DNA of 55,960 nucleotides from an uncultured Fretibacterium sp. (lineage in GTDB: Bacteria; Synergistota; Synergistia; Synergistales; Aminobacteriaceae). The notes beneath the pieces are model-generated. The model searched no databases. It saw nothing but the letters and a program-made list of their open reading frames with translations, and was not told the origin of the DNA. The stretch lies in the NCBI GenBank assembly GCA_947168585.1, contig CAMVMK010000010.1:1-55960 (forward strand), read 5' to 3'. Numbering within the stretch: the first letter of the stretch is position 1; the number at the start of each line of letters is the position of its first letter. Shown one piece after another: positions 3,240-39,943 of this stretch. The position numbers and the translations under genes are program-made.

Positions 3240-3308
3240 AGTGAGGGATTAGGAATTAGGAATGAGGAATTAAAAAAACTCCTCACCCCTCACCCCTAAC
3301 TCCTAACT
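3240..3308. repeat. Heptad repeat hairpin, copy 1
   Basis: Left arm is built from GTGAGGG/ATTAGGA/ATGAGGA heptads and right arm from their inverse (CTCCTCACCCCTCACCCCTA and on), around an A7 centre. The arms pair imperfectly into a long hairpin between converging genes. The TAG stop of the minus-strand gene at 3303 lies inside it. Other copies are near 467, 12189, 23824, 30529, 48233, 48314 and 53213. Confidence 0.75.
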
Positions 3309-6300
3309 GTTTTTCTTAACTTTTCTGCGGATTTTGAAAATTCCCGAAGAAAGCATCATCGCAATTAAACCTATTGCCGAGCCTGTAATACAACCTGCGT
3401 TGGAAGGTCCGAGTGTTGTATTATCTTCTTCAGACGCTGTAACAACGAATGAATAATCAGTATCGGGCTCAAGATATGCCGCTACATTAACGTTAGTGGC
3501 GTTTAATAAGCCTAAAGCATTTGTTATTTCGTTGCCCTCATCGTCAAGGAACATTCCTTTTTCACTGTTTTCTTCGCTAAGTGAAACAATTCCGTCAGCT
3601 TCATCAATTCCGCTGGAATTAGCAGAAAGTTTTGTAACTCTAATGAACACTTGCGAATAAGGCGTTATGACAGAAGCATTGATAGCTTCGCGGATTTTAT
3701 TGGCAATATCAGCAACAAAAACGTAAATTTTCGCCTCTGTTATCGTACCGCTCTCCAAGACCGGCAACGCCAAAATAGGTTCTTCATTCTCGAAGCTCTC
3801 TGAAATTTCTGTAACAGTGCGGCTTTCACTTGAGAAAGCATCAACATCAAGTGCTGCAACAGCCGTATCAGAAGCAATACCAGCTAATTTAGCTATGAAG
3901 TTAGCGGCACTTATGAGGCTGTCGCTGACTTTTTTAAGCGAAGTTTTTGCAACGTTTGAACTGTTGTTTATGAAATTCTGCCTCTTTTGCTCTTCATCGT
4001 CTGTTACGGTGCTGCTATCTCCGCTTGAAGATTGGTCTCTGCTTATGGTAGACGATGACGCAGATACGACAGCATTAATATTAAATGTCTTTGTATTTAC
4101 ATCGCCGTCAGAAACTTCGATTATAACTGTATGACTTCCTATTGCTGCTGTCGACGGCGCACTGATTGAATATCTATGCTGAGTTCTTCCGGGAGTACCT
4201 GAGTTTTCTACATTTAAGCCGCCGTTATTTTGTACATTCCAGCTTAAATTATTTTTGAATTTTCCGTCAGCCGTAACAGTTACGATTTTAGCAGTTCCGC
4301 CCGCTGTGAGACTGATTGAAGCAGTATCAGCCGAAAGCTCCAATAAATAATTTTCAGTCGAAGGCGTAACGCTCACAACAATACTTAAATCGGCACTTGT
4401 TCCGTCAACATCGTAAGCAGTTATTGAAGCATCATAATCTCCTTCTTCAGCGTCTGAAGCAGCAGTTAATGACAAATTAGCAGTGCTCGAAGATTGGGAA
4501 ATATTCCATGAGAAAATATCTTCATCGGCTGTAAGTTCCCATGAAGTTACATTTTTATTTGCTGTAAATTTCACGGTTTTAGTTTCGCCGGCCTCGAGTG
4601 TCGGATTAGTATCGCCTGTAATTCCCGTGAGTTTGTATTTTGAAATTATCGGCCAATAATAATAATTTTCTCCGAGCGGTTCAAGAGCAGCCGCGACATT
4701 AATTCCGGCTTTGCCGCTTGACGGGACTGTCGTAATTTCATTGCCGGAGTTATTAATTAAATGTGCTTCAAATTCTTCGCTTTCTTCGTCTGCAAAGATA
4801 TGAATTAAAAGTCCCTCGCCGACTGTCAAAAGTTTATTTTTTACCGCATTTTGAATTAAATCGTAGCTGACCGGGAAGACATAAATTTTTGCTTCGTCAA
4901 TTTGTTCGCCGTCAATAGCATCTAAAGCTATAACCGGGACTTCAGCAGGCTCAAATTCTGCAAATAAATCATTAAAACTTGAAATTTCAACATCTCCTGC
5001 TAATAATGCCGCTTTGTCAAGTACTGCAACACTGCCGCTGCCGGATTTATTGAAGAGACTTTTAATTCTTGCTGCGTTTGCCTCAATAAGAGCCGCGTAT
5101 TCTTCTTCGGGCGTGAGCGGTTTATCTGAAACTATTACCTTAAAACTTACATTTTTAGAAGTATTGTTTGTATCTTTTGCCGTGATTGTTACGGTGTAAG
5201 TTTTTGCAGTCGCTGACTCTAATGCTTTGACGCTGACAACCGCGCTTGAGTTAGAACTGTTAGTAAATGAAATTTCAAGCCCCGAAACTGAAGATTTTGA
5301 CCACGTTAAACTACCGTTAGGCGTTCCGCTGACTGAAATATTTACGGTTTGAGCGTCCTCTTCTTTTACAATGCTTATACTTGCAGGGCTTGCACTGAGA
5401 TTAAAATTAGACTCGGCAGGAGTGCCCTGACTTTCAATAATTAAAGTAATTTCTTTTGAAGCCGTGTAGCCCAGTGCGTCCGCTGCTGTAATCGTTGCTG
5501 TATAAGTTCCTGCGGCGGCTGAACTTGAAGGCGTAAATTTTACCGCAGCATTTCCGCCGTTTTTAGTGATTTCCGGCGTTACGCCGCTGGGAGTTCCTGA
5601 AACGCTCCACGAAATTTCAGTTTGAGTTTTATTCGTTGTGAGATTTACAGACTGGGCAGATCCTCCGGCTTTCAACGTCAAACTTGACGGAGAAACAGAC
5701 GTGATTTCTAAATCTGTATCATCTTCGGAATTTTTGACATTTACATCAATAGTAATTGAAGCGTCAATTAAATCCTCTTCATTCGATGCCGTGATTACAA
5801 CTTTATAAGTATTTCTTTGGGCGTTTGAATTTGCGCTAATTGTTAAAATTCCTGAATTATCAGGCCCTGAAACAGTCAAAGCGTCTTCATTATATGAGAG
5901 TTCCCAATTATCAACGCCGTTAATAAAGCCGCTGAGCGTCAAAGCAATTTCTTTAGCATCGCCGCCTGCAATTAAATCAATTTCTGTTTTATCTGCAATT
6001 ATAGCGTCTTCAAAATAAATGCCGACATTAAGCGGTATAGTTACAGTTGTGTCGCCTGCAGTTAAAACAATATCCGCCGAATAATTTTCTTCGGTATATG
6101 CTTCTCTGTTCGGGACAGTTACGTTAACATAAACCGCGCCGATATTAGTTTCCGGGTCTAAATCTGAAATTTCAGGCACGATTTTAATATCGTCCGGGAA
6201 ATTTGAATTTGTTACAGCTGCCGTTGGTTTTACATTTTTATAAATTATATCTGGTTTTTGGGTTTCCGGCTTGGAAAAAGAAATGTTCACCTCCTTACTA

Positions 6301-22972: not shown

Positions 22973-23827
22973 ATGAATTTTTCAAACTCTCAGCGCGCTG
23001 AAGTTTTAGTGCAGGCTCTGCCTTATATTCAGGAATATACGGGAAAAACTGTCGTTATTAAATACGGCGGAAACGCTATGACTAACGAGAACTTAAAGCA
23101 GCAGGTTATGGAAGATATTGTTTTGCTTAGGCTCGTTGGAGTTAAAGTCGTTTTAGTTCACGGAGGCGGCCCGGAAATTAATGACTTAATGCAAAGATTA
23201 GGAAAAAAGCCCGAATTTTTGAACGGCCTCCGCGTTACTGATAATGAAACTGTCGAGATAGTTCAAATGGTCTTGGCCGGAAAAATTAATAAATCTTTAG
23301 TTAATTTGCTCGAAGTTAAAGGCGGCCGCGCTGTCGGACTTTCAGGAATTGACGACAGAATTATTGAAGCTGAATGTAAAAATCCCGATTTAGGGTTCGT
23401 CGGAGAAGTTACTAAAATCAACACCGAATTAATTAACGATGTCTTAGAACGCGGATATATCCCCGTGATTTCGACAATAGGAAGCGGAAAAAACGGCGAA
23501 GTTTTTAATATTAACGGCGATATTGCCGCGTCCTGCGTTGCGGGGGCGTTGAAAGCTGAGAGATTAATAATCCTCACGGATATTGCAGGAATTTTGCGCG
23601 ACCCTTCAGACATTTCGACTTTAATTCCGGAACTTACTATTAATGAGGCCGAAAAATTAAAATCTGACGGCGTTATCTCCGGCGGAATGATACCTAAAAC
23701 AGAATGCTGTATCAGAGCAATTAACGAAGGAGTTAAGAAAGTTATCATTATGGACGGAAGAATACCTCATTCGATTTTAATGGAACTTTTCACGGACGAG
23801 GGCGCAGGAACGATGTTTTTTAAGTGA
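22973..23827 (+). CDS. argB: Acetylglutamate kinase
   Basis: This enzyme phosphorylates N-acetylglutamate, often the arginine-controlled step. Motifs are VVIKYGGNAM, VVLVHGGGPEINDLM, FLNGLRVTD, VGLSGIDDRIIEA (variant of the GLSGxD motif), NINGDIAA, LIILTDIAGILRD and SGGMIPKTECCIRAINEGV. At 284 residues it is normal. An N-terminal helix before YTGKTVVIK (NSQRAEVLVQALPYIQEY) matches the arginine-sensitive hexameric class, so feedback inhibition is likely. It starts 2 bases after argJ. The stop TGA belongs to the heptad repeat at 23824-23878. argD, argF, argG and argH are not in the window. Confidence 0.97.
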   Translation: MNFSNSQRAEVLVQALPYIQEYTGKTVVIKYGGNAMTNENLKQQVMEDIVLLRLVGVKVVLVHGGGPEINDLMQRLGKKPEFLNGLRVTDNETVEIVQMVLAGKINKSLVNLLEVKGGRAVGLSGIDDRIIEAECKNPDLGFVGEVTKINTELINDVLERGYIPVISTIGSGKNGEVFNINGDIAASCVAGALKAERLIILTDIAGILRDPSDISTLIPELTINEAEKLKSDGVISGGMIPKTECCIRAINEGVKKVIIMDGRIPHSILMELFTDEGAGTMFFK

Positions 23828-23878
23828 GGGGTTAGGAGTGAGGAGTGAGGAGTTTTTTTCACTTCCTGCTCCTAATTT
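23824..23878. repeat. Heptad repeat hairpin, copy 3
   Basis: GTGAGGG, GTTAGGA, GTGAGGA, GTGAGGA, then GTTTTTTTCAC and the inverse arm CTTCCTGCTCCTAAT. It lies between converging genes and provides the stop codons of argB (TGA) and of the minus-strand gene at 23872 (TAG). It probably serves as a bidirectional terminator. Confidence 0.75.
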
Positions 23879-25095
23879 TCTTTTATAAATTCCCGTGAAC
23901 TTAATAATTTTGCAATAGCATTTATTGACGGGAATAAATCGCGTCTTGCAGCACTCACGAAAAATTCTACATCGTCAATAGACATACTGAAACCGTTTGA
24001 GGCTTTATATGAGGCAGGATAAAGCGCGGAACATAAATACGAGGCGGCTTCCATTGCTTTTTCGTGTTTTATAATGTCAGCCAAATTATTTGTGTCGAAA
24101 TATCCGTACATCATCATTTCCCAAAATCTTTGAGCCTGCAAAATTTCAAATCCTGACAAACGTTTTATCATTTTGTCGGATTTATTTTTGTAAGTCATGT
24201 AAATTTTTCCTAAATCGTAAATAGGATTGCCTAAACGTATTCCCATCATGTTAATTAAAATTAACTCGCCGTTCGGCTGAACAAAAACATTTCGGGCGTT
24301 GAAATTTCCGTAGAGAAGAGTATCAGCTTCCGGGACAGCGTCAATAAGTTTTATCAGAGCGTCAACTTCATTTGCTCGAAGCCACTTAGACATGTTTTCA
24401 GCATAGTTTCTATAAACGTCAGAATTTTTCGAGATTGAATCAATCATCGGCGCAACTGAATGAATCTGCCGCAATAATTTTCCCATAGCATCGGCATATT
24501 GATTTTGTCTACTTTTTGAAGCAGCAATCATCGAGAAAACTGTTTTAACGTTTGAAAGTTCGTACAACATTCCGTAAAGACCTTTATACGTTACTATGTC
24601 GTAAGCAATTAAAGTCGGAATTTCAAAAACCATAGCCGCTTGAGAATATTGACGTTCCATTTCGACTGTCTCAAGGCTCGTGCCTTCGGGATAAACTTTC
24701 AATAATTTGTCATCGCCTGCATAATAAACAGTAACGCCGCCGCTTACGCCCATCATATGAACTTCCTCGTTTGAAACGTCGCGGAGTTTTTTAGTAACGT
24801 CAAAAATTTCAGTGAAGCCCGTTATGTCAAAAATTTCGTAAGCCTCAGGAGATACGTTAATAATTTTTATCGAGAGTGCTTCTTTTTTGTTGAAACTCAA
24901 AAGGACTCTAAGTCCCGCGCTCGAAATATATAAAAGGTCTTCGCAGTCAATAACGATAGAACCTTTAGGGTGATTTTTTCTCTCAGATGCCAGCATATTT
25001 TCTAACTCTGTCGAATTTTGCGAGGCTATTCTGCCGGAAAGTTTGAAGTAAAGTTTTCCGTCTTTCATTGACGCGCTTAAACTAAAATCAGGCAT
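23872..25095 (-). CDS. STAS domain fused to a degenerate aminoglycoside-phosphotransferase-like kinase, paralog 1
   Basis: Residues 1-105 form a STAS (anti-sigma-antagonist/SpoIIAA-like) domain with the phospho-switch region LLYISSAGLRVLLSF (Ser58, Ser59). From about 118 a kinase-like domain follows: GGVTVYYAGDDKLLKVY has the nucleotide-binding Lys133, and a Glu lies in EMERQY. MGKLLRQIHS leads to the catalytic loop. That loop reads YGNFNARN (262-269) where active kinases have HGDxxxxN, so the catalytic Asp is Asn264. The metal-binding Asp of the following IDW/IDM motif is Asn282 (LINMMG). The terminal NPIYDLGKIY is kept. It is thus probably catalytically dead. It is the first stop-side member of three tandem paralogs. 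Function is unknown; a partner-switching regulator is a reasonable inference. Confidence 0.85.
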   Translation of the reverse strand: MPDFSLSASMKDGKLYFKLSGRIASQNSTELENMLASERKNHPKGSIVIDCEDLLYISSAGLRVLLSFNKKEALSIKIINVSPEAYEIFDITGFTEIFDVTKKLRDVSNEEVHMMGVSGGVTVYYAGDDKLLKVYPEGTSLETVEMERQYSQAAMVFEIPTLIAYDIVTYKGLYGMLYELSNVKTVFSMIAASKSRQNQYADAMGKLLRQIHSVAPMIDSISKNSDVYRNYAENMSKWLRANEVDALIKLIDAVPEADTLLYGNFNARNVFVQPNGELILINMMGIRLGNPIYDLGKIYMTYKNKSDKMIKRLSGFEILQAQRFWEMMMYGYFDTNNLADIIKHEKAMEAASYLCSALYPASYKASNGFSMSIDDVEFFVSAARRDLFPSINAIAKLLSSREFIKEN

Positions 25096-25119
25096 TTTTT
25101 TACTCCTTTGTTTTAATTT

Positions 25120-26361
25120 TTAATAATCAGGATTAAGCAGCGATTTTATTTTTTCGGTTTGAGGGAAAAATTCACGGCGTGTCTGTGCAACAAGAAAATC
25201 AATATCCCTCGCAGGTAAATCAACGCCGTTCATTTTTTTATAACAGGCCGGATAAAGTGCTGAATATAACAGTGCTGAAGCCTCCATTCTTTCCTCATGT
25301 TTGTTTATTTCAGCAAGATTATTTGTGTCGAAATAGCTGAACATCATATTTTCCCAAAACTTTTTAGCCTGAAAAGCTTCAAAGCCGGTCATCAGCTTAA
25401 CAATATCGTTTGATTTACATATGTGCGTCATGTAAATTCTTCCTAAATCATAAATAGGATCGCCGTATTGTATTCCCGTCATGTTAATTAAAATTAAATC
25501 GCCGTTTTGATGGACAAAAACATTGCGGGCATTAAAATTATCGTAAACAGCAGTTCCTGCTTCCGGAATAACGTCAATAATATTTATCAGCGTTTGAATT
25601 TCTGAAGCATTAAAAAAGCTGTTCATTTTTTCTGCATAACTTTTATAAACTTCAGACGCTCTCGGAATTATATCTAAATGCGGCTCGGCTGAATGAATTT
25701 GACGCAGCAATTTCCCCATATCAGCGGCATACTGCATTATTTTCCAAGGAGTCTGCTCTAAGTGCGAAAATACAGTTTTAGCTTTCGGAAGCTCGTATAA
25801 CATTCCGTATTGACCGTTAAAAGTTACAATGTCGTAAGCTATTAATGTCGGTATATTTGATAAAAACGCGGCTTGAGCATATTGTTTTTCGCGTTCAATT
25901 AATTCAAAACCCGTTCCGGCTTTATAAACTTTCATAAAAATATCATCGCCGATATTATAAAGAGTGATGCCGCCGCTATAGCCTATCTTATGAACATTTT
26001 TATCATTTGAAACATCGCGGAGTTTATCTGAAACATTGCTCGAAATATCAGATTTTTGCGAAACGTCAAAAATTTCCGTGAAGCCGGTTGTGTCAAAAAT
26101 CTCGTAAACGTCGGGCAAAACGTTAATAATTTTTATAGGTTCTTTTTCTTTTTTCTTAAAACTCAAAAGAACTCTAAGACCTGCGCTCGAAATATAAGTA
26201 AGTTCTTCACAGTCAAAAATTACAGAGCCGTTAGAATTATTTTTTCGTTCGGATATAAGCATATTGCTCAAATTTGTAGCGTTTTGAGAAGTAACTTTTC
26301 CTGAAAGATTAAAATAAAGATTTCCTTCTTTCATTGAAGTACTTAAATTAAACTCAAACAT
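25120..26361 (-). CDS. STAS domain fused to a degenerate kinase-like domain, paralog 2
   Basis: This is the middle paralog, 413 residues, with the same layout as its neighbours. STAS residues 1-105 contain LTYISSAGLRVLLSFKKKE (Ser58, Ser59), then an extra stretch of about 6 residues (SDISSNVSD) before the kinase-like part. The nucleotide Lys is kept (IFMKVY). The catalytic loop is DNFNARN with Asn275 replacing Asp, and INM replaces the metal motif. It is much closer to paralog 3 than to paralog 1 (PTLIAYDIVTFNGQYGMLYE and LYSALYPACYKKMNGVDLPA are nearly shared). AAAGGAAG precedes the ATG. The 24-base gap to paralog 1 and 23-base gap to paralog 3 are also similar, as expected from recent tandem duplication. 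Confidence 0.85.
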   Translation of the reverse strand: MFEFNLSTSMKEGNLYFNLSGKVTSQNATNLSNMLISERKNNSNGSVIFDCEELTYISSAGLRVLLSFKKKEKEPIKIINVLPDVYEIFDTTGFTEIFDVSQKSDISSNVSDKLRDVSNDKNVHKIGYSGGITLYNIGDDIFMKVYKAGTGFELIEREKQYAQAAFLSNIPTLIAYDIVTFNGQYGMLYELPKAKTVFSHLEQTPWKIMQYAADMGKLLRQIHSAEPHLDIIPRASEVYKSYAEKMNSFFNASEIQTLINIIDVIPEAGTAVYDNFNARNVFVHQNGDLILINMTGIQYGDPIYDLGRIYMTHICKSNDIVKLMTGFEAFQAKKFWENMMFSYFDTNNLAEINKHEERMEASALLYSALYPACYKKMNGVDLPARDIDFLVAQTRREFFPQTEKIKSLLNPDY

Positions 26362-26384
26362 TTTATCTTCCTTTGTTTTGATTT

Positions 26385-27623
26385 TTAATAATCAGGATTA
26401 AGCAGCGATTTTATTTTTTCGGCTTGAGGGAAAAATTCACTGCGCGCCTGATCAACAAGAAAATCAATATCTTTTGCAGGTAAATCAACGCCGCTCATTT
26501 TCTTATAACAGGCCGGATAAAGTGCTGAATATAACAGTGCTGAAGCCTCCATTCTTTCCTCATGTTTGTTTATTTCAGCAAAATTATTTGTGTCGAAATA
26601 GCCTAACATCATATTTTCCCAAAATTTTTGAGCCTGAAAAGCTTCAAAGCCTGTCATCTGTTTAACAATATCGTTTGATTTACATCTGTACATCATGCAG
26701 GCTCTTCCTAAATCATAAATAGGATCGCCGTATTGTAATCCCGTCATGTTAATTAAAATTAATTCGCCGTTTTGATGTACAAAAACATTGCGGGCGTTAA
26801 AATTATCGCAGATAACAGTGTCGGCTTCCGGAATAATGTCAATAATATTTATCAGTTTTTTAATCTCTGAATTATTAAAAAAGCTGCTCATTTTCTCTGC
26901 ATAACTTTTGTAAATTTCATTAGCTCTCGGAATTATATCTAAATGCGGCTTGGCTGAATGAATTTGACGCAGCAATTTTCCCATTTCAGCAGCATATTGC
27001 GTTAATTTCCAAGGAGCTTCCTCTAAATGAGAGAATACAGTTTTAGCTTTCGGAAATTCGTATAACATTCCGTATTGACCGTTGAAAGTTACAATGTCGT
27101 AAGATATTAATGTCGGTATATTTGATAAAAACGCGGCTTGAGCATATTGTTTTTCGCGTTCAATTAATTCAAAGTTCGTTCCGGCTTTATAAACTTTCAT
27201 TAAAATATCATCGCCGATATTATAAAGAGTAATTCCGCCGCCATGAGCAATTTCCTGAACATTTTCATCTGAAATATCGCGGAGTTTTTTTGAAACTTTG
27301 CCCGGTGTATAACTTTTTTTTGAAATATCAAAAATTTCTGTGAATCTGGTTATGTCAAAAATCTTATAAACGTCAGGCAAAACGTTAATAATTTTTATAA
27401 CAGCCTCTTCTTTTTTCTTAAAGTTCAAAAAAGCTCTAAGACCTGCACTCGAAATATATGTAAGATCTTCACAGTCAAAAACGACAGAACCCTTAGGGTG
27501 ATTTTTACGCTCAGATGCCAGCATATTGCTTAAATCTGTAACGTTTTGCGAATCGATCCTGCCTGAAAGATTGAAGTAAAGATCCCCATCTTTAATCGAT
27601 GTACTTAAACTAAACTGAAACAT
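26385..27623 (-). CDS. STAS domain fused to a degenerate kinase-like domain, paralog 3
   Basis: This is the first-transcribed paralog, 413 residues from ATG 27623, chosen because GGAGG (27629-27633) lies 5 bases upstream and the protein start MFQFSLSTSIKDGDLYFN aligns with the other two. A longer frame to 27707 would run into alr and is rejected. The STAS domain has LTYISSAGLRAFLNFKKKE. The kinase-like part keeps the Lys (ILMKVY) and the DPIYDLGR element, but the catalytic loop is CDNFNARN and the metal motif INM. All three paralogs therefore share the two Asp-to-Asn changes, which argues for a selected, non-catalytic role. It is divergent from alr with 62 bases between starts. Confidence 0.85.
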   Translation of the reverse strand: MFQFSLSTSIKDGDLYFNLSGRIDSQNVTDLSNMLASERKNHPKGSVVFDCEDLTYISSAGLRAFLNFKKKEEAVIKIINVLPDVYKIFDITRFTEIFDISKKSYTPGKVSKKLRDISDENVQEIAHGGGITLYNIGDDILMKVYKAGTNFELIEREKQYAQAAFLSNIPTLISYDIVTFNGQYGMLYEFPKAKTVFSHLEEAPWKLTQYAAEMGKLLRQIHSAKPHLDIIPRANEIYKSYAEKMSSFFNNSEIKKLINIIDIIPEADTVICDNFNARNVFVHQNGELILINMTGLQYGDPIYDLGRACMMYRCKSNDIVKQMTGFEAFQAQKFWENMMLGYFDTNNFAEINKHEERMEASALLYSALYPACYKKMSGVDLPAKDIDFLVDQARSEFFPQAEKIKSLLNPDY

Positions 27624-27685: not shown

Positions 27686-28849
27686 ATGAACGATTATTTA
27701 ATGTCAAGGACTTGGGCTGAAATTAATCTCGATAACTTAGCCGAAAATTTTAAGATTTTACGGGCAAAATTAAATCCTAAATCAAAATTTTTAGCAGTCT
27801 GCAAAGCCAACGCTTACGGGCACGGAATTATAGAGTGCGCGAAAAAATTTCAGGATTTAGGAGCAGATTATATCGCCGTTGCGAGCGTCATTGAGGGCGC
27901 AGAGCTTAGAGAAAACGGAATAACTATCCCGATTTTATGTTTAGGCCAGGCCAATCCTGATTTAGCTTTATTAACGGCCGAATATAAAATTACTCAGGCT
28001 GTCGGAGATTTAGAGAACGGCGAAAAAATTTCAAAAATAATTTCAGCCAAAAATTCTAAGATTAAAATTCACGTCAAAATAGACACCGGAATGAGCAGAA
28101 CGGGTTTTTATTGGCCTGATGACGAAAACGAAAAACTAAAAACTGCAGGCGAAATTAAAAAACTCTGTGAACTTCCCAGCCTCGAAGCTGAAGGAATTTT
28201 CACGCATTTTGCCGCCGCTGACGATGACAAAAATTTTACGAGACTTCAATTAAAAAAATTTTTGGACGCTAAAGAAAAATTATCCGCGTTAAAAATTAAT
28301 TTCAAAATTTCTCACGCCGCCGCGAGTGTCGGGGTCTTGAATTATCCTGAATCTCATTTAGATATGGGACGCTTCGGGCTTGTTCTTTACGGTTACGCCG
28401 ACACCGAAAAAGGCAACGAGGGAAGCACTTTAGGCTTAAAGCCCGTTATGAAAGTCAAGAGCAAAATTACAGCCGTCAGAAAATTGCCCGCCGGAACGAC
28501 TATAAGCTACGGAAGAACTTTTGAATTAAAACGTGATTCTTTAATCGCCGTCTTGCCTGTCGGATACGCTGACGGACTTCCGAGAAATTTATCAAATAAT
28601 TTCAGCGTAAAAATTCACGAAAATCTCTGTCCAATTCTTGGCCGTATCTGCATGGATATGTGCATGGCTGACGTTACGGACTTGAAATTAAAAAATATAA
28701 ACGTTAAGCCCGGCGATATTGCTACGATTTTAGACGGAGATTTAATCCCGACAGCCGCGAAAAATGCCGGAACTATTATTCACGAAATTTTATGCAATCC
28801 ATCACAGAGAGTTCCAAGAATTTTTATTAATTACAAATTAAAAATATAA
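27686..28849 (+). CDS. alr: Alanine racemase
   Basis: This PLP enzyme makes D-alanine for peptidoglycan. The PLP lysine is Lys40 in AVCKANAYGHG. The second catalytic residue is Tyr275 in TTISYGRTF. Others include KIDTGMSRTGF, SHAAASVGVLNYPESHLDMGR followed by FGLVLYG, LPVGYADGLPR and ICMDMCMADVT. The ending EILCNPSQRVPRIFIN is typical. Length 387 is normal. AGGAGG (27671-27676) lies 9 bases before ATG 27686, and a TATAAT (27653-27658) sits in the divergent gap. A hairpin (28857-28886) separates it from the converging gene. Confidence 0.97.
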   Translation: MNDYLMSRTWAEINLDNLAENFKILRAKLNPKSKFLAVCKANAYGHGIIECAKKFQDLGADYIAVASVIEGAELRENGITIPILCLGQANPDLALLTAEYKITQAVGDLENGEKISKIISAKNSKIKIHVKIDTGMSRTGFYWPDDENEKLKTAGEIKKLCELPSLEAEGIFTHFAAADDDKNFTRLQLKKFLDAKEKLSALKINFKISHAAASVGVLNYPESHLDMGRFGLVLYGYADTEKGNEGSTLGLKPVMKVKSKITAVRKLPAGTTISYGRTFELKRDSLIAVLPVGYADGLPRNLSNNFSVKIHENLCPILGRICMDMCMADVTDLKLKNINVKPGDIATILDGDLIPTAAKNAGTIIHEILCNPSQRVPRIFINYKLKI

Positions 28850-31586: not shown

Positions 31587-34500
31587 TTACTTAGGTTCTT
31601 TTGAGAAAAATTCTAATTCTTCTTTCTCTTCTTGTTCCGAAACATTTTCAGCTTCATCCGGAACTTGGACATCGTCTGAAATTGCAGCGTCATCTGAAGT
31701 TTTTACGGCAATTACAGGCTCGTAAATATCTCCGACGTTGAGCCAAACTGAAACTATAATCTTATGATCGGCTGTAGTCTTGTTGGTTTCGCTGCCGTCA
31801 ACTTTGAAAAATTCTGCGATTTCATCGTCAGTGTTTTTCGCGCGGTTTTTGGCAAACGCAAACCAAGTTAATTCCTTACCGGCCTCGATTTCCGGTGCAA
31901 TGTCGATTTCAAAGTCATACATATCGCTTTCAGTTACGCTGATTTCCGGCAATACAGCCGCGACAATGTAGCCTTCTAACTCATCAAATTCTTTGCTTCC
32001 GAGCGATTCAATGCTGCGTTCAGCTCCGAAATTAACAACGCCAGGCTCTTGAGTTTCGGCTTCTGTTTGAGTTTCATTTTCTGTCTCAAGCTCTTGAGTT
32101 TCCTGCGAAGTTTCATCGTTTACGGATTCAGATTCTTCCGGTTGGGACTGAGTCTCTTTCGGCTTCACATTACCAGCATCAACGGCAGGCTCTTCTTCTA
32201 CTGTTTTAAGTGTAATATTTTGAACAGCTGAGCCTTCACTGTTTTTAGCCGTAACTTTGAACGTTATTGTTTTTCCGGCTGAGGCTGGCGCAGTTCCTGT
32301 AATTGTGAACTTATTAAGCTCTTCAGTCTCTTTGATATTAAATCCGGCGACCTTGTTCATCGTAACGGTGAATTTCGGTGAACCCTTAAGAACAATCGGA
32401 ATTTCAACATTGCTGCCTTTAGCCTTCGTGAAGCTATTCTCATTTGCGAACTCCGGCTTACCGCCTTTAATCACAAGATTAAATGTTTTCTTTGCCTTGC
32501 CGTCATTCACGTTAATGGTAATCGGAAGACTCTTAATCGACTGCGTAGGTTTGCCCGTGATTTCGGCTGTGCCCTTGTTTACGTCGGCCTCGAACTTAAG
32601 TCCGTAATCATCGAGTTTCCCATTAGCGATTGAGCACTCAAATTTTGTAAACGGTAAGGCTCCGCTCGTTTCAATTTCAGCACTGTAATTTTCGTTATAA
32701 GCAGCCTGAGGAAGTGAAGATGTTGTAATTTTAGGCGCGGAGTTATTGACAGCAAGAATGAAATTCTTCGTTACTGCTTTACCGTAGCCGTTGGATGCAG
32801 TGATTCTAATCGTATACTTACCCGCAACTTTAGGCTCGCCTGTAATTTCGGCTATTCCTGTGTTTTCATCAGCCTCGAGCTTAAGTCCTAACGCATTGAC
32901 TTGCTCATCAGTGAGATTCAGCCATTCCGCAGTAAATGTTGTAAGCGGCAATGTTCCGGTTACTTGAATTTTTTGCTCGTAATCTCTGCCTATATCTGCA
33001 GCGGGAAGCGATGCCGTTTTGAATGTAGCCGGTGTGGCTTTGATATTGAGCTTTAATGTTTTCTCAACTTTTCCGCCGTACTTGTTCTCTGCTGTTACTT
33101 TAATCGAGAGATTTGTTAATTCGCTTTTAGGCTTGCCCGAGATTTTGGCTGAAGCTTCATTAAAAAATTCGTTGTCATCGCCAGCTTCGAATTTATTGAA
33201 CGTAAGGCCGACTTCCGTGAGTTTTTCAGCAGCGTTGTCATCGATTGTAATAGATTTAACAGGCAGAGTTTTCCCGGATGCTGTAAATTTGGCCTCGTAA
33301 TCTCTTCCGACATCACCTGCAGGAAGCTCCGTCTTTAATGTCGGGTTTTCGCCCTTGACAGTAAGCTTTAATGCTTTCTCAGTCTTGCCTCCGAATTTGT
33401 TAGTAGCTGTGATAGTGATCGGGAGATTAGTAACTATCTTTTTGAGCACGCCGCCGTTTTCAGTGTCAGTTGCAAGAGTTGCAGTGCTGCTGGTCTCCTC
33501 TGCGTCCGGAGTGAACTTAAGACCTAATTTTTCCGTAAGATTTTCCTTTGTAATTTCATAGGTATTTGCTCCGACTGAGTAGTCCCAAGTTATCCCGTCT
33601 CCGGTCGCTGTAAATTTCTCGCTGTAAGCAGCTCCAGCATTACCAGGCTTAAGATTTGCCGTCAATCTCGGAAGATCTCCGTTAATCGTGAGATTTAATT
33701 TCCTCTCTACAGCATTGCCAAATTCGTTATCCGCAGTGATGGTAATCGGAAGATTTTTGACTATCTTAGCGGGCGTACCCTCGATTGCTGCTTTGCTGCT
33801 GTCATCTTCATTGGCTTTGAATTCAAGACCTAATTTTTCCTTAAAGTTGTCTTTAGTAATCCCGTATTCATTATCACCGACTGAATAATCCCAAGTTATC
33901 GGTAAAGAGCCCGTTGCTGTAAATTTCGCGTTGTATTGCGTACCAGCTTTGCCTGCAGGAAGTGCCGCCGTCAATTTCACCGGGTAAGCGTTAATTTTGA
34001 GAGCTAACGGCTTTAATGAAACTTTATCCGACTTGTCGTCTTTGTGCCAAGCCGTTATTGTAATTTGCTGGTTAATTACTTTTTTAGGCGTACCCGTTAT
34101 TTCAGCTGTACCTTTGTCTTTATCAAAATCAAATTTAAGGCCGTATTCATTTTCGTTATTAAATAATGCCTTAGAGGTATCGTCAAGTTCAAAATAAATC
34201 GGTTTTGTTCCGGACGCTGAAATTTTCGAGCCTTTATATTCTTTTCCGACTTCACCGGCGGCGAGCGATGCGGTTAATTTCACAGGAACAGCGTTGACAG
34301 TAAGAGTAAACTCCTGCTCTTCTGTGTTTTCATCAGAATGCTTGTTTGTTGCCTTAATTTTAAGGTTATAAGTCTTATCTTTCGTAGGAGTTCCTGAAAT
34401 TACTAACTGCGTTCCGTTTGACTTTTTCTCGGCTTTCAAACCGTCATAATCGTCATCGTTTTCTTCCGCCAGGCCTTTAATTTCCCAATTTATAGGCGTT

Positions 34501-37500
34501 GTACCTTTGGCCGTTAATGTCGCGGTATATTTTTTATCCGTTGTAGCGTCAGGAAGTTTTTTTCCTTTTAACGCCGTTATCGTTGGAAGTTCATAAACCG
34601 TAAAATTAACTTTTTCGGAATCTTTACCGCCGCCGTTTTGAGCTGTGACAGTTGCCGTGAAAGATCCGGCTTTTGTCGGTTTTCCTGAAAGTTTGCCGCT
34701 ATCTTTGTCAATCTTTAATCCGGCAGGCAATCCTGAAGCTGTCCATGTTACAGGCTGAGTTCCTTTTGAAACTTCAAAATCATACCCTGCGAAATTTTTA
34801 TTGGCTTCAATAACAAACGAATTTTCATTTTCTTCAAATTCAGGAGTTTTAATTTTCGGCGCGAGAGCATTAATCTTCAAACTTAAAGGTTTCATTACTG
34901 ATTTTTGAGCCCCGTCTTCTCCATTTGTCGCGGTTATCTTAAGCTGGAACGTTCCCCACTTCGTAGGCTTGCCAGTGATTGTTGCTTTTCCTTCGTTCTG
35001 CTGCGCTTCAGTCTGCTTGAGTTCGAGGCCGATGTCTGCAAGTGTTCTGTAAGTTTTATCGTTGACTTCGCATGTAAACGTAATCGGCTTTGAACCGTTT
35101 GCTGAAATTTCCGCAGTGTATGTCGGAGCATCATCGTCGAGATCAGCTTGTGCCGGGTTAAGTTTTGCGGTTGTTATCGCCGGCGCAACGGGGTTGACTG
35201 TGAGAGTCAAGTTCTTAGCTTCACTATTTCCTGCTTTGTTAGCTGCTGTGAAATTAATATTGAGAATACCGAATCCCGTCGGAGTACCTGAAATTTTCCC
35301 GGTCTTCTTATCAAGCTTCAGACCTAAACCGTCTATCAACTCTACTTCTGTGGCATCGTTAACACCGCTGTCAAGATCGTTGTCATCGTTTCCAATAATT
35401 TCAAAATCCCACGTTATATTTTTTGTCCCTGTAGCTGTTAATGCAGCATTATATGCTTTGCCGTCCATAGCGGCCGGGAGTGATTTTGTAGTTATTTTAG
35501 GCTTTTCGTAAACTGTGAGCGCAGCAGTTTTTGAAGTCTTACCGTCATCGTTTTGGGCGTTGATAGTAACCTTAAAACTTCCTGCCTTTGTCGGAGTTCC
35601 TGAAAGTTTAACGGTTTTTCCTGTTTGGTCTTTTTCAAGAGTCAATCCGGCCGGTAAACCCGCAGCTGTCCATTTTATCGGCGTAGTTCCTTTTTCAAGT
35701 TCAAATTGATACTCGTATTCTGTATCTTTAACAGCAAAGCTATCATCGGCTTCAAAATTAATTCCTTTAAGCTCTGGCGCAACACCGGTAATCTTCAAAG
35801 TGTATTCTTTTTTAACTTCGTTTGCCGTACGATTATTTTTATCGTTATATGCCGTTACAACAAGCTTATACGAACCAGCTGACGTAGGTTTACCTTTGAT
35901 TGTAAGTTTACCGTTTTCTTCGTCAGCTTCAGCAGTGAAACCGAGATGACTATTATTCTTAGTAAGAATATCAGGTCCATCAAGTGTACATGTAAAGAAA
36001 ATCGGTTTTGAGCCTGTCGTTTCAATTACAGCTTCGTAGTCTTGCTGCTTTTCGAGATCCGGATCATACTCGGCATTGTCAATCGTTGTAGTTGTAATTT
36101 TCGGCGGAATAACTTTGACCTCGAGAGTCAATGTTACAGGGTTACCAGTTCCGGCTGAGTTCTTTGCAGCAATTATAAGCTCGTAAGTGCCGTAAGTTCC
36201 ACCCGCTGGAGTTCCGGAAATTTTCCCGGTGTTTTTATCAATTTCTAATCCTTTCGGTAAATCTCCAGTAAGCCCCCATTCGGTAGGCGAACCCGTAGCC
36301 GTTAATGCTGCATTATATTCTACTCCGACTGTAGCAGCAGGAAGTGATTTCGTAGTGATAACCGGAACTTCGTAAACCGTGAACGGAACTTCTTTTAACT
36401 GATATTGTCCGCCGCTGTTTTTAGCTGTTATAGTTGCCTTGAATTTTCCGGCCTTTGTCGGTGTTCCTTCAAGTTTGCCGTCCGCAGTCAACTTCATTCC
36501 TGCAGGCAATCCCGAAGCCGTCCATGTTATAGGCGGAGTTCCCTTTGAAAGTTTGAATTGATATTCTTTTCCGTAAGGTTGACCTGCAACAGCCACAAAC
36601 TTATTTTTGTCCTCGCCGTCATAATCAGGCGTTTCAATCTTCGGCGGTGTAGCCTTAATAGTCAAATTTAGAATTTTCGATACAGTATTTTTTGAGTAAT
36701 CGCCGTAGTTTTGAGCGTTTGATGCCGTTATCATAATCGGAAATGTCCCGGCAACTTTAGGCGTACCTTTGATTGTCGCTGTGCCTTTATCTTCCTCATA
36801 TTCGAAATCAAGTCCTAAATCCTTAAATAAATTATTGCTTGAATATGTAAAAGTAATCGGCATTGAGCCCGTCGCTGTGATTTTTCGTTCAGCGTATTCA
36901 TCGGCCTGCATTGGGAGGATAGCCGTTGTTGTTATCGCCGGAGGAACAGCATTGACCTTTAACGTCAACTCTTTAGTATCTTCAAATTTGCTCTCGTTCT
37001 TTGCCGTGAAATTAAAAGCGTATATGCCCGGTTTCGTTGGAGTCCCGGAAATCGTCCCGGTAGTTTCATTAAATTCTAATCCATCAGGCAAATCTTCGTC
37101 AATGCTCCATGTTATAGGCGTTGTTCCCGTAGCTTTTAATGTCGCGGTATATGCTTTGCCGTCCGTAGCATCAGGAAGTGATGTTGTCGTTATCACCGGG
37201 AGCTGGTAAACCGTGAACGGAATTTCTATATGAACTTTATTGCCGAAGTTTTCTGCGTATATAGTTGCCGTGAAAGGTCCGGCCTTTGTAGGTGTTCCCG
37301 TAAGTTTGCCGTCCGTACTTAACTTTAATCCCGTAGGCAATCCCGAAGCCGTCCATTTTATTTCGCCGGTTCCTGCTGAAGTTTCAAATTGATATTCTGC
37401 GTAGTCTTCATTAAGAATAGCAACAGGTAAGCTAGGCTCTTTAATAACCGGAGCTTGATCGATAACTTTTAACGACACCGGTATTTCTACAGGAACATTA

Positions 37501-39830
37501 TTATTTTTAAGCTCCGTGTAAGGGTTATTAGCTTTGAATTTTACTGTGTAATTTTCTGCTTTTGTCGGAGTACCTGTAATTACAAGCTCCTGCTCTTGAT
37601 TTTCTAACTTCAAGCCGTCGGGCATGCCTATAATTTCGGCTCCTAAATTAATCGGAAATGTTCCTTCCAAGTTTAATACCGATGTGTACTCCTGACCGAC
37701 AACTGCGGGTTCTTTATTTTCTAATGAAATTGTAGGCTTTGTAAGCGTTTGGACAAAAATATCAAATGCCTTAATTTCGCTCCATATGCCTTGAGTACCA
37801 GCAGATAATCCTAAAGTGTATCTGCCTGCTGTTTTAGGAGTGCCTGTTATTGCGCCGATTGTTGTGTTAAATTTAAGTCCGCTCGGTATCGTTCCGTAAT
37901 TAATTTTCCACTGGTCAGCAGTAACGCCGTCTTCAAGTTCAAGAGTTTTATTAACAGAGTAGCCGACGTAGGCATCTATGTAATTTGTTTTTATTACGGG
38001 CTTGTCTATTATTGTAAGCGTAAACGCTCTAGAATTATTGCCGTATTCATTCGTAGCGGTTACCGTGAAAGTATATTTGCCTTTAGTCGTCGGTGTTCCG
38101 CTTAAAATTCCGGCTTCAGATAAAGAAAGTCCGTCAGGAAGACTGCCGCTGTAACTCCATGTTATAGGACTTGAGCCGGAAGCTGAAAATTGATGATTGT
38201 AAGAAACGTTGACAGCCCCGGCCGGTAAAGAATTAATCGTGATTGCGGGGGCAGTATTTGAAGGCACAGTGAAAGCCCGCACGCAGGTATTGTAACTATT
38301 GTTCGACGCATTTGTCCAATATGAACCGTTAGATGAAAAAAAACTTCCCGCTTCAAACGTAACATTGTCTGAAAAACCAGTGAGAACGGACTCAAGAGGA
38401 ATTTTATTCGTGCCCGTAAGTTTTATAACAACAGAGAAATATTCACCTTTCGTCAATTCAACCGGCTTACTAAGCGTTACAGTATGATAACCTGCGTAAG
38501 CCTCAGTGCCTGTCTTCGTAGATAATGAAGCCCCCTTAACAGGAGTTGAAAGAGCAGTTGAAGTCATACCTTTGTAGATATTAACTTCGTAACTTACATT
38601 ATTGTCCGGCGTATAGAAAGCAACTTCTGTCAAATTTTCGTCATCGCGTTCGGATTGGAAAATATTTGCTGAGTAAACAGTACTTATATTATTATAATAA
38701 ATATATCCGATCCAGCCTAAAGCGTCATAATAATATGCCTTCATGTCTTTATCAGCATCTTCGACAATGAAAGCAGAACCGTCAGCTAAAAATTGTTCAT
38801 AGGACAACCAGAAGCAGCTATCTTTATCACTCCAGGTATCGCCCCAAGAATTTTTAATAAGCCATGCACCGTTTGATGAGAGATTGTAATTGAAATTTTC
38901 TTTAGGGTATGTATCATCCCAGCCGATTATTTGAACAGCGTGATTAGTTGAATATGCTGGATAGTAATAAGACTTGTTATCTTCATTATATCCTGCATTA
39001 TCATGATAATAGCTCGCGGCAACTGAACCGTTTTGCATTATTATGCGCTTAATGATATTGCGGCTCTCATCGCTGGCATTGATCTCATTTCTTGGCATGC
39101 TTAAAACATAAACATCGCGGAGTCTCAAAACCCTGTTATAAGATTCGGGAGTTGTTTTTGAAGGTGTTACTGCACTATAGGGGCTATACGGAAGTTCGCT
39201 CTCTAATATCGGGCCGTCAAGCCTTCCATAGATTGCGGTAGTCATATTATTATTACCGCCGTGCATAAGTATATTATCGAGCTCACTATATCTAGGATCA
39301 TAATAGTTGGAATAATCATCAAATGCCTTTGATTTGTCAGGATTTTTTAACGCAAAATAAGCTAAGTGCATTTCGGAAAGATCTATGCCGCTGCCTGCGC
39401 CTTTCTGCTTCAAATAATTTGATTCCATTGCGCCTGTAGTTGCAAAAGCCCAGCATGTTCCATAATCTCCCTGATTTCTTACGGACGAAACATAACGCTT
39501 GCCTTCGACATCCCTTAAATCATATTTTGCAGGTATAGACGAAGCTTTATCGTAACGGCTGATTTCTCTGGGCGGATTGTCAGCCAAATATGATAAGTCG
39601 ACAGGGAAAGGAATGTATCCGTTATTTCGGGAGTTAGGACTGCTTTTATCGAGGTTAAGTTTACTCTTCCCGGATTTCAAACCCGCCTGCCATTCCAAAA
39701 ATGCCGGAGATAAAGGTGCCATGACCGGCCTTTCTGAAGCTGCTTGAGCCGACGGCGGAAGAACTGAAAACGCAGAAAGAAGAATTGCCGTCAACATCAA
39801 GAAAGACATGAACGAAAATTTTTTGCTCAT
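31587..39830 (-). CDS. Giant secreted papain-like cysteine protease with about 21 Ig-like repeats
   Basis: This is an exported protein of about 2747 residues. ATG 39830 is chosen (signal MSKKFSFMSFLMLTAILLSA, ending AQA about 30) because AGGAG lies 9 bases upstream; a frame to 39929 adds only a non-conserved leader. The C1A peptidase domain spans about 100-390: Gln120 and Cys126 in NQGDYGTCWAFA, His297 in NHAVQIIGWDD and Asn327 in IKNSWGDTW, all intact. A lectin-like domain follows (about 395-555). Then come about 21 putative-Ig (He_PIG) repeats with the W..SGLP.GL / SGTPTKAG pattern; units about 4-15 repeat as groups of three. The end is acidic (Glu, Gln, Thr) with no CTERM or membrane anchor. 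A role in digesting or adhering to host or dietary protein is inferred. Confidence 0.9.
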   Translation of the reverse strand: MSKKFSFMSFLMLTAILLSAFSVLPPSAQAASERPVMAPLSPAFLEWQAGLKSGKSKLNLDKSSPNSRNNGYIPFPVDLSYLADNPPREISRYDKASSIPAKYDLRDVEGKRYVSSVRNQGDYGTCWAFATTGAMESNYLKQKGAGSGIDLSEMHLAYFALKNPDKSKAFDDYSNYYDPRYSELDNILMHGGNNNMTTAIYGRLDGPILESELPYSPYSAVTPSKTTPESYNRVLRLRDVYVLSMPRNEINASDESRNIIKRIIMQNGSVAASYYHDNAGYNEDNKSYYYPAYSTNHAVQIIGWDDTYPKENFNYNLSSNGAWLIKNSWGDTWSDKDSCFWLSYEQFLADGSAFIVEDADKDMKAYYYDALGWIGYIYYNNISTVYSANIFQSERDDENLTEVAFYTPDNNVSYEVNIYKGMTSTALSTPVKGASLSTKTGTEAYAGYHTVTLSKPVELTKGEYFSVVIKLTGTNKIPLESVLTGFSDNVTFEAGSFFSSNGSYWTNASNNSYNTCVRAFTVPSNTAPAITINSLPAGAVNVSYNHQFSASGSSPITWSYSGSLPDGLSLSEAGILSGTPTTKGKYTFTVTATNEYGNNSRAFTLTIIDKPVIKTNYIDAYVGYSVNKTLELEDGVTADQWKINYGTIPSGLKFNTTIGAITGTPKTAGRYTLGLSAGTQGIWSEIKAFDIFVQTLTKPTISLENKEPAVVGQEYTSVLNLEGTFPINLGAEIIGMPDGLKLENQEQELVITGTPTKAENYTVKFKANNPYTELKNNNVPVEIPVSLKVIDQAPVIKEPSLPVAILNEDYAEYQFETSAGTGEIKWTASGLPTGLKLSTDGKLTGTPTKAGPFTATIYAENFGNKVHIEIPFTVYQLPVITTTSLPDATDGKAYTATLKATGTTPITWSIDEDLPDGLEFNETTGTISGTPTKPGIYAFNFTAKNESKFEDTKELTLKVNAVPPAITTTAILPMQADEYAERKITATGSMPITFTYSSNNLFKDLGLDFEYEEDKGTATIKGTPKVAGTFPIMITASNAQNYGDYSKNTVSKILNLTIKATPPKIETPDYDGEDKNKFVAVAGQPYGKEYQFKLSKGTPPITWTASGLPAGMKLTADGKLEGTPTKAGKFKATITAKNSGGQYQLKEVPFTVYEVPVITTKSLPAATVGVEYNAALTATGSPTEWGLTGDLPKGLEIDKNTGKISGTPAGGTYGTYELIIAAKNSAGTGNPVTLTLEVKVIPPKITTTTIDNAEYDPDLEKQQDYEAVIETTGSKPIFFTCTLDGPDILTKNNSHLGFTAEADEENGKLTIKGKPTSAGSYKLVVTAYNDKNNRTANEVKKEYTLKITGVAPELKGINFEADDSFAVKDTEYEYQFELEKGTTPIKWTAAGLPAGLTLEKDQTGKTVKLSGTPTKAGSFKVTINAQNDDGKTSKTAALTVYEKPKITTKSLPAAMDGKAYNAALTATGTKNITWDFEIIGNDDNDLDSGVNDATEVELIDGLGLKLDKKTGKISGTPTGFGILNINFTAANKAGNSEAKNLTLTVNPVAPAITTAKLNPAQADLDDDAPTYTAEISANGSKPITFTCEVNDKTYRTLADIGLELKQTEAQQNEGKATITGKPTKWGTFQLKITATNGEDGAQKSVMKPLSLKINALAPKIKTPEFEENENSFVIEANKNFAGYDFEVSKGTQPVTWTASGLPAGLKIDKDSGKLSGKPTKAGSFTATVTAQNGGGKDSEKVNFTVYELPTITALKGKKLPDATTDKKYTATLTAKGTTPINWEIKGLAEENDDDYDGLKAEKKSNGTQLVISGTPTKDKTYNLKIKATNKHSDENTEEQEFTLTVNAVPVKLTASLAAGEVGKEYKGSKISASGTKPIYFELDDTSKALFNNENEYGLKFDFDKDKGTAEITGTPKKVINQQITITAWHKDDKSDKVSLKPLALKINAYPVKLTAALPAGKAGTQYNAKFTATGSLPITWDYSVGDNEYGITKDNFKEKLGLEFKANEDDSSKAAIEGTPAKIVKNLPITITADNEFGNAVERKLNLTINGDLPRLTANLKPGNAGAAYSEKFTATGDGITWDYSVGANTYEITKENLTEKLGLKFTPDAEETSSTATLATDTENGGVLKKIVTNLPITITATNKFGGKTEKALKLTVKGENPTLKTELPAGDVGRDYEAKFTASGKTLPVKSITIDDNAAEKLTEVGLTFNKFEAGDDNEFFNEASAKISGKPKSELTNLSIKVTAENKYGGKVEKTLKLNIKATPATFKTASLPAADIGRDYEQKIQVTGTLPLTTFTAEWLNLTDEQVNALGLKLEADENTGIAEITGEPKVAGKYTIRITASNGYGKAVTKNFILAVNNSAPKITTSSLPQAAYNENYSAEIETSGALPFTKFECSIANGKLDDYGLKFEADVNKGTAEITGKPTQSIKSLPITINVNDGKAKKTFNLVIKGGKPEFANENSFTKAKGSNVEIPIVLKGSPKFTVTMNKVAGFNIKETEELNKFTITGTAPASAGKTITFKVTAKNSEGSAVQNITLKTVEEEPAVDAGNVKPKETQSQPEESESVNDETSQETQELETENETQTEAETQEPGVVNFGAERSIESLGSKEFDELEGYIVAAVLPEISVTESDMYDFEIDIAPEIEAGKELTWFAFAKNRAKNTDDEIAEFFKVDGSETNKTTADHKIIVSVWLNVGDIYEPVIAVKTSDDAAISDDVQVPDEAENVSEQEEKEELEFFSKEPK

Positions 39831-39943
39831 TCTAAAAATCTCCTTTCTTAAAATTAATTTTTTTAATTTTAACTGGGGAGGGGTAAAATTCAAGGAAAAA
39901 TTTACGATTTTTTTAGAAATGAAAAGCAAATAGGAAAATTTTT

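What the first reader, a model, noticed from the sequence alone, without database searches (positions are those of the whole stretch)
23872..27623. Tandem triplet of STAS fused to kinase-like domains with both catalytic aspartates changed to asparagine
Each protein has a SpoIIAA-like STAS domain with the YISSAG switch and an APH-like kinase domain. In all three, HGD becomes YGN, YDN or CDN and the metal motif IDM becomes INM, while the nucleotide Lys and the RN and PIYDLG elements stay. Conservation of the same two losses across three copies suggests a selected non-catalytic role, perhaps sensing a nucleotide or ligand and passing it through STAS partner switching.
Basis: partly seen in the sequence, partly recalled or inferred. 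Interest (0 to 1): 0.8.

Follow-up and report, generated by a model that had tools for sequence, protein, structure and literature searches.

The report
Dead-kinase STAS switch proteins, tandem triplet
Three neighbouring genes of a gut bacterium encode switch proteins fused to a kinase-shaped domain that has lost its catalytic residues; relatives carry the same change and often sit beside a phosphatase of a known type of regulatory switch, so the dead kinase probably serves as a sensor or binding part.

Summary
Confirmed. Three minus-strand ORFs (23872-25095, 25120-26361, 26385-27623) are STAS plus APH/choline-kinase-fold proteins. All three lack the HxD His, the catalytic Asp and the metal Asp, but keep the nucleotide Lys, catalytic-loop Asn and structural Asp; the glycine loop is broken too. 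Two paralogs in the same genome keep HGD and IDIG, so the columns are right. The losses mark one clade of Synergistaceae proteins: in my tree 22 of 25 members lack both Asp, against 0 of 55 outside it. One member keeps both and two keep one. Full-length-range matches occur in 14 of 81 family genomes. Sampled pairs show purifying selection on the kinase part. Neighbours differ as well: SpoIIE-type phosphatase within 1 kb in 16 of 27 clade genes and 0 of 42 other Synergistaceae relatives; a tyrosine-phosphatase-like gene in 0 of 27 and 17 of 42. The window genome has the matching operon on another contig without the pseudokinase. Best reading: non-catalytic STAS-pseudokinases of a partner-switching module, perhaps controlling an ABC importer whose ATPase carries an RsbW-like tail. 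Function is inferred, not shown.

The parts
26385..27623 (-). STAS-pseudokinase copy A, 412 aa (ATG at 27623 after AAAGGAGG; CDN..INM)
25120..26361 (-). STAS-pseudokinase copy B, 413 aa (YDN..INM); 82% identical to A
23872..25095 (-). STAS-pseudokinase copy C, 407 aa (YGN..INM); 59% identical to B; AF2 model mean pLDDT 94.8
24784..25095 (-). STAS domain of copy C (residues 1-104); S59 lies where SpoIIAA has its phosphoserine (that this is the phosphorylated residue is recalled)
23875..24783 (-). APH/choline-kinase-fold domain of copy C (residues 105-407); K133, E147, N269, D294 kept; Y262, N264 and N282 stand where active relatives have His, Asp and Asp; glycine-loop positions 118 and 121 are no longer Gly

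Best explanation
The triplet encodes STAS proteins whose APH-fold domain is a pseudokinase. I propose that they work as anti-anti-factors in a partner-switching module. A sensor phosphatase (dCache-HAMP-SpoIIE) dephosphorylates, and an RsbW-like HATPase phosphorylates, Ser59 of the STAS domain. The free STAS protein then binds an RsbW-like domain and releases its target. The dead kinase domain would be an allosteric input or docking part that decides when STAS can engage. In several relatives the module is co-encoded with tandem SBP_bac_3 proteins, a permease and an ABC ATPase with an RsbW-like C-terminal domain, so uptake through that ABC importer is the likeliest output. In the window genome the triplet would act in trans on the operon at contig C2. 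Shown: sequence losses, predicted fold, clade, purifying selection in sampled pairs, linkage. Inferred: lack of catalysis, Ser59 phosphorylation, partners, output.
For: The 55 other STAS-kinases in the tree all have the His and the metal Asp, and 53 have the catalytic Asp; in the clade Y262 is found in 22, N264 in 21 and N282 in 22 of 25. The clade is one branch at 100/100 in a careful tree of 40 rows and one branch in the kinase-only tree of 80 rows. K133 and E179 are kept in 25 of 25, N269 in 22, D294 in 24. Residues fixed in the clade but not outside it (F271, M204, G205, P360, 25 of 25) point to a new constraint. Kinase-part dN/dS is 0.08-0.38 in 10 hand-picked pairs. SpoIIE lies within 1 kb on the same strand in 16 of 27, HATPase in 15 of 27. 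The own genome holds the operon c8-STAS-STAS-LPG_synthase-EamA-SpoIIE/HATPase-SBPx3-permease-ABC with 18 bp between SpoIIE and the first SBP, where relative L043 carries the pseudokinase. The own ABC ATPase is 80% identical over its whole length to that of L043, whose tail is in the profile that matches the RsbW-like domain at hhalign probability 95.6. Firmicutes relative L117 fuses STAS, APH and HATPase_c_2 in one chain.
Against: The triplet has no SpoIIE, HATPase or PTP gene anywhere in the window, which is its whole contig. SpoIIE is found in 42 of 43 genomes of the genus whether or not the pseudokinase is present, so its presence in trans says little. 11 of 27 clade genes have no SpoIIE within 1 kb (one of them has it at 1034 bp). 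L047 keeps both Asp, and L046 and L052 keep the metal Asp; the careful tree needs 2 changes at the catalytic Asp and 4 at the metal Asp, so the metal Asp was lost repeatedly or regained. Window pairs have the highest kinase dN/dS of the ten (0.36, 0.38), and a fourth copy in the genome is split, so constraint may be weaker in this lineage. No binding, phosphorylation or output was tested. Whether a sigma factor is the target was not searched.
Confidence: 0.5

Rival explanations
1. Non-catalytic scaffold: the kinase fold only fixes STAS dimers or docks the protein on a partner, with no ligand sensed; partner switching as above.
For: Structural residues are kept while both Asp are lost in 22 of 25 and the glycine loop in nearly all; clade-fixed residues lie in the C-lobe and tail, and the C-tail is less variable in the clade than in active Synergistaceae relatives (mean entropy 1.91 against 2.39 bits).
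Against: The lysine, its glutamate and E179 of the nucleotide pocket are almost invariant in the clade (25, 24 and 25 of 25), more than a pure scaffold needs. STAS and N-lobe are more variable in the clade than in active relatives.
Confidence: 0.25
2. Still an enzyme, with altered chemistry, as kinase folds such as SelO or SidJ show (recalled and from listings); the clade member L047 with both Asp could be a plain kinase.
For: L047 keeps both Asp and L046 and L052 the metal Asp; Lys, Glu and Asn of the site remain.
Against: In 22 of 25 both Asp are gone; glycine-loop G118 is lost in 24 and G121 in 25 of 25, leaving no acidic metal ligand at the usual sites of the window copies. L047 lacks the His and the glycine loop (LAKDEDMSLYRM).
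Confidence: 0.12
3. Decaying duplicates on the way to loss, with no selected role.
For: A fourth copy in the genome (L010) is split between two frames, L211 holds a copy split by a stop and L057 a truncated one; window dN/dS is the highest of the clade pairs.
Against: Three intact window ORFs; 24 matches above 500 bits in 14 of 81 genomes, 23 of them without an internal stop; dN/dS 0.08-0.38; Asn in 21 and 22 of 25 at the two Asp sites.
Confidence: 0.08
4. Classical sigma-factor control: the proteins free an alternative sigma factor from an RsbW-like anti-sigma factor.
For: STAS and HATPase_c_2 partners of the SpoIIAA/SpoIIAB and RsbV/RsbW type; the own genome has 7 HATPase_c_2 matches at E up to 0.01, 3 of them over the cut-off.
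Against: The conserved neighbours are transporter genes, and one of them carries an RsbW-like tail itself. None of the neighbour proteins that I scanned with Pfam was a sigma factor, but the genomes were not searched for sigma factors.
Confidence: 0.2

Closest known systems
Bacterial spore kinases (BSK: YtaA/CotI, CotS, YutH), choline/aminoglycoside kinase group, with predicted pseudokinase classes (PMC2860764, passages seen)
   Same: Bacterial APH/choline-kinase fold in which some classes lost the catalytic Asp and other motifs but keep fold residues; a non-enzymatic role is inferred there too.
   Different: BSKs are spore proteins (no STAS fusion mentioned in the passages that I saw); here STAS is fused, the clade is Synergistaceae, and the neighbours are partner-switching and transport genes. 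The CotS model TIGR02906 hit the active paralog weakly (29.7 bits, cut-off 172.7) and was not listed for P0001 and P0003.
SpoIIAA/RsbV anti-sigma factor antagonists with SpoIIAB/RsbW kinases and SpoIIE/RsbU phosphatases
   Same: STAS domain with the switch Ser; SpoIIE phosphatase and HATPase_c_2 encoded beside many clade members (16 and 15 of 27).
   Different: Fused pseudokinase domain; no sigma factor among the neighbours scanned; the linked output looks like an ABC importer.
Active STAS-APH proteins of gut Firmicutes, Coriobacteria, Treponema and Synergistaceae (nearest NCBIfam model TIGR02172, below cut-off)
   Same: Same domain order and homologous along the whole length.
   Different: Nearly all keep HGD or HND and IDxG/IDM (of 88 rows, 5 Fretibacterium rows have YGN with INM or LNM, 3 Lachnospiraceae rows have HGN with MDM, 1 row is cut before the site); in Synergistaceae 17 of 42 relatives outside the clade lie beside a PF13350-type phosphatase and none has SpoIIE within 1 kb.

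Membership tests
STAS domain family (PF01740) | profile match above the curated cut-off | tested here: met
   41.4-45.3 bits against 22.6 in all three
STAS anti-sigma factor antagonists (TIGR00377) | match above the curated cut-off | tested here: not met
   50.3 and 49.4 bits against 53.45 for P0001 and P0003; P0002 not scanned
STAS anti-sigma factor antagonists (TIGR00377) | switch serine at the SpoIIAA phosphoserine position | tested here: met
   YISSAG aligned with SpoIIAA FMDSSG; S59 in 23 of 25 clade rows, 1 Gly, 1 row lacking the STAS part
STAS anti-sigma factor antagonists (TIGR00377) | phosphorylated by a cognate HATPase and binds it when dephosphorylated | not testable with these tools
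   needs biochemistry
APH / choline kinase fold enzymes (PF01636) | fold | tested here: met
APH / choline kinase fold enzymes (PF01636) | HxD catalytic Asp and IDxG/IDM metal Asp | tested here: not met
   N264 and N282 (C) and Asn in the same columns of A and B
Bacterial spore kinases / CotS family (TIGR02906) | profile match | tested here: not met
   not listed at E up to 0.01 for P0001 and P0003
SpoIIE/RsbW partner-switching module | phosphatase, HATPase and STAS genes encoded together | tested here: inconclusive
   SpoIIE within 1 kb in 16 of 27 clade genes, not at the window triplet; own genome has the operon on another contig

The most novel reading that the evidence does not exclude
A partner-switching system whose output is not a sigma factor but an ABC importer: the ATPase carries an RsbW-like domain, and STAS-pseudokinases, in which a dead small-molecule kinase serves as the sensor, bind that domain to turn uptake on or off.
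Probability: 0.25. Interest if true: 0.78.

Novelty: new variant of a known kind. Interest (0 to 1): 0.52.

Why it matters
Pseudokinases are studied mainly in eukaryotes; among bacterial proteins of this fold, spore proteins are the described case that I found. Here a catalytic-looking and a dead branch of one STAS-kinase family live in the same genomes, and the loss of catalytic residues goes with a different neighbouring phosphatase. That gives a natural experiment on how a dead kinase becomes a regulator. The transporter-linked RsbW-like tails suggest that partner switching can act on transport, which is testable.

Tried and rejected
Tried without result: a first scan of genome contigs with the single window protein confirmed no relative; promoter and terminator scans gave no more than shuffles; a profile comparison of the c8 protein with the RsbW-like domain gave 7% probability, and of the EamA tail 25.7% directly, though that tail matched the ABC tail at 94.9%. 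I do not claim that c8 is RsbW-like.

Considered and rejected: mis-assigned Asp columns; chance (the clade); an antibiotic-resistance role, since the protein lacks the catalytic residues and is fused to STAS.

Literature: searches returned no paper; some searches listed 1, 15 (of 125), 3 and 5 papers, none of whose listed titles or abstract openings names a STAS-pseudokinase. This holds only for that library and those terms. Of PMC2860764 I saw passages, of PMC4718504 the abstract and outline, of all others only the search listing. The roles of individual active-site residues are partly recalled.

Choices made by hand: 23 of the 88 STAS-kinases went into the 80-row tree; 11 short, kinase-only or cut rows of the 59-row alignment were left out; 15 of the 55 outside rows served in the careful tree; the dN/dS pairs (10 and 11, sharing sequences, some with dS above 1) were picked by closeness. 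The clade tree row of L010 is the kinase piece of a split copy. In one search, L057 (truncated) and L211:5279 (split) were put in the clade group without a tree; without them the SpoIIE count is 14 of 25 and the HATPase count 13 of 25. The 42 others include 9 kinase-only proteins. Many loci end at contig edges, so linked genes may have been missed. The neighbour profiles were built from two sequences each.
Full report
OBSERVATION. Three ORFs lie head to tail on the minus strand between an argB-like gene (22973-23827 +) and an alr-like gene (27686-28849 +), 23 and 24 bp apart, each with a plausible ribosome site (the gene names argB and alr are my reading of the translations). A = 26385-27623, B = 25120-26361, C = 23872-25095.

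HOW FAR IT EXTENDS. Among 81 genomes of the family, 24 matches above 500 bits to the degenerate profile occur in 14 genomes, 10 of 43 in the window's genus and 4 of 4 in a second genus; one of the 24 has an internal stop. In a tree of 80 proteins with the catalytic columns left out, these form one branch of 25 rows (SH-aLRT 100), again in the kinase-only tree and at 100/100 in a careful tree of 40 rows. The STAS-only tree, of few columns, needs 2 changes. In the branch 22 of 25 lack both Asp; L046 and L052 keep the metal Asp and L047 keeps both. The careful tree needs 2 changes at the catalytic Asp and 4 at the metal Asp, so the second was lost more than once or regained. Outside, 53 of 55 have H, D and D; L151 and L166 (Lachnospiraceae) have HGN with the metal Asp, an independent loss. 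L165 shows the same motif but was not in the tree. L052 is a very long branch and its place is unsure.

WHAT IS KEPT AND WHAT IS LOST. In the 25 clade rows: K133 25, E147 24, E179 25, H212 25, N269 22, D294 24 kept. Position 262 is Y in 22 (His in 55 of 55 outside), 264 is N in 21 (Asp in 53 of 55), 282 is N in 22 (Asp in 55 of 55); glycine-loop G118 is lost in 24 and G121 in 25 (G in 52 and 44 of 55 outside). Other residues are fixed in the clade (M204, G205, F271, P360 in 25 of 25) and differ or vary outside. N282 ranks 39th and N264 67th of 292 kinase columns by conservation in the clade. Fold residues kept and catalytic ones replaced is the pattern described for spore pseudokinases of the same fold (PMC2860764, passages).

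SELECTION. Pairwise kinase-part dN/dS is 0.08-0.38 in ten clade pairs and 0.08-0.28 in eleven pairs of active relatives. The window pairs are the highest (0.36, 0.38). A and B are 75-84% identical in DNA over the first 400 alignment columns (STAS) and 86-96% after, which suggests partial gene conversion; the triplet is therefore not three independent witnesses.

CONTEXT. Among Synergistaceae loci, clade members have a SpoIIE gene within 1 kb on the same strand in 16 of 27 and a HATPase_c_2 in 15 of 27; a tyrosine-phosphatase-like gene (PF13350 in the one scanned) in 0 of 27. For the other 42 the counts are 0, 0 and 17 (L057 and L211:5279 placed by hand). Of those 17, the phosphatase gene is upstream in 14 and downstream in 3. 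Outside Synergistaceae 11 of 67 have SpoIIE within 1 kb although nearly all the sequences look active, so the split is not universal. In relative L043 the order is c8, STAS, STAS, LPG_synthase, EamA, (one opposite ORF), SpoIIE-HATPase, STAS-pseudokinase, three SBP genes, permease, ABC ATPase. L049 has seven SBP-cluster genes in that place. The window genome has the same operon on contig C2 (L012, L219) but with SBP 18 bp after SpoIIE, so the pseudokinase is missing there and the triplet stands elsewhere. The phosphatase protein of that operon has dCache, HAMP, SpoIIE and HATPase_c_2 domains.

OUTPUT. The ABC ATPase of the operon has a C-terminal extension that matches the RsbW-like domain (hhalign probability 95.6, E 1.2e-8, profile of four rows); Pfam itself does not call it. 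The own genome's ABC ATPase is 80% identical to that of L043 end to end, and its gene lies about 3.4 kb from the SpoIIE gene. Matches to the tail at E up to 1e-6 occur in 47 of 81 genomes, by my count 41 of them with 150 bits or more; some weaker ones are ordinary RsbW-like domains, and fusion to an ABC domain was checked only in the rows named here. A MATE transporter with C-terminal HATPase_c_2 (L084) and an EamA transporter with a related tail point the same way: transport proteins carry the domain that partner switching acts on. This link is inference.

STAS SWITCH. YISSAG of the window proteins aligns with FMDSSG of SpoIIAA; Ser59 takes the place of the serine that one SpoIIAA structure has as Ala. 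It is Ser in 23 of 25 clade rows. That this serine is the phosphorylation site in SpoIIAA is recalled knowledge.

VERDICT. A non-catalytic role in partner switching is the best reading, at about 0.5 for the whole model; loss of ordinary kinase activity alone I would put near 0.85. Nucleotide sensing is not supported. Against it stand the missing linkage in the window itself, the three clade members that keep one or both Asp, and the absence of any experiment.

Noticed in passing
L043:11993-13099; own genome L219:6303-7412 (C2:66302-67411): Amino-acid-type ABC ATPase with a C-terminal RsbW-like domain in a SpoIIE/STAS operon; tail matches in 47 of 81 family genomes at E up to 1e-6.
   Followed up: partly
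L117:8330-9919: Firmicutes chain with STAS, APH kinase and HATPase_c_2 in one protein; other 500-580 aa chains may be alike but were not scanned.
   Followed up: partly
L060:5926-6819, L011:6121-6999 and 15 more genes: A tyrosine-phosphatase-like gene (PF13350 in L060) lies beside STAS-kinases outside the clade, 17 of 42, upstream in 14; the two proteins named start with a signal-peptide-like stretch by eye.
   Followed up: partly
L151:8004-9083, L165:2-1051, L166:1266-2345: Lachnospiraceae STAS-kinases with HGN and a broken glycine loop but the metal Asp kept: an independent partial loss.
   Followed up: partly
L010:6006-7143 (own genome, contig C44): A fourth, more diverged copy split between two frames, beside a phage-type integrase gene (L010:4870-6018).
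   Followed up: no
L049:275-6251: Seven tandem genes of the SBP cluster downstream of the pseudokinase.
   Followed up: no
window 3303-8627 and 31587-39929, minus strand: Very long ORFs of 1774 and 2780 aa; the first has only a sub-threshold Pfam match, the second was not scanned.
   Followed up: no
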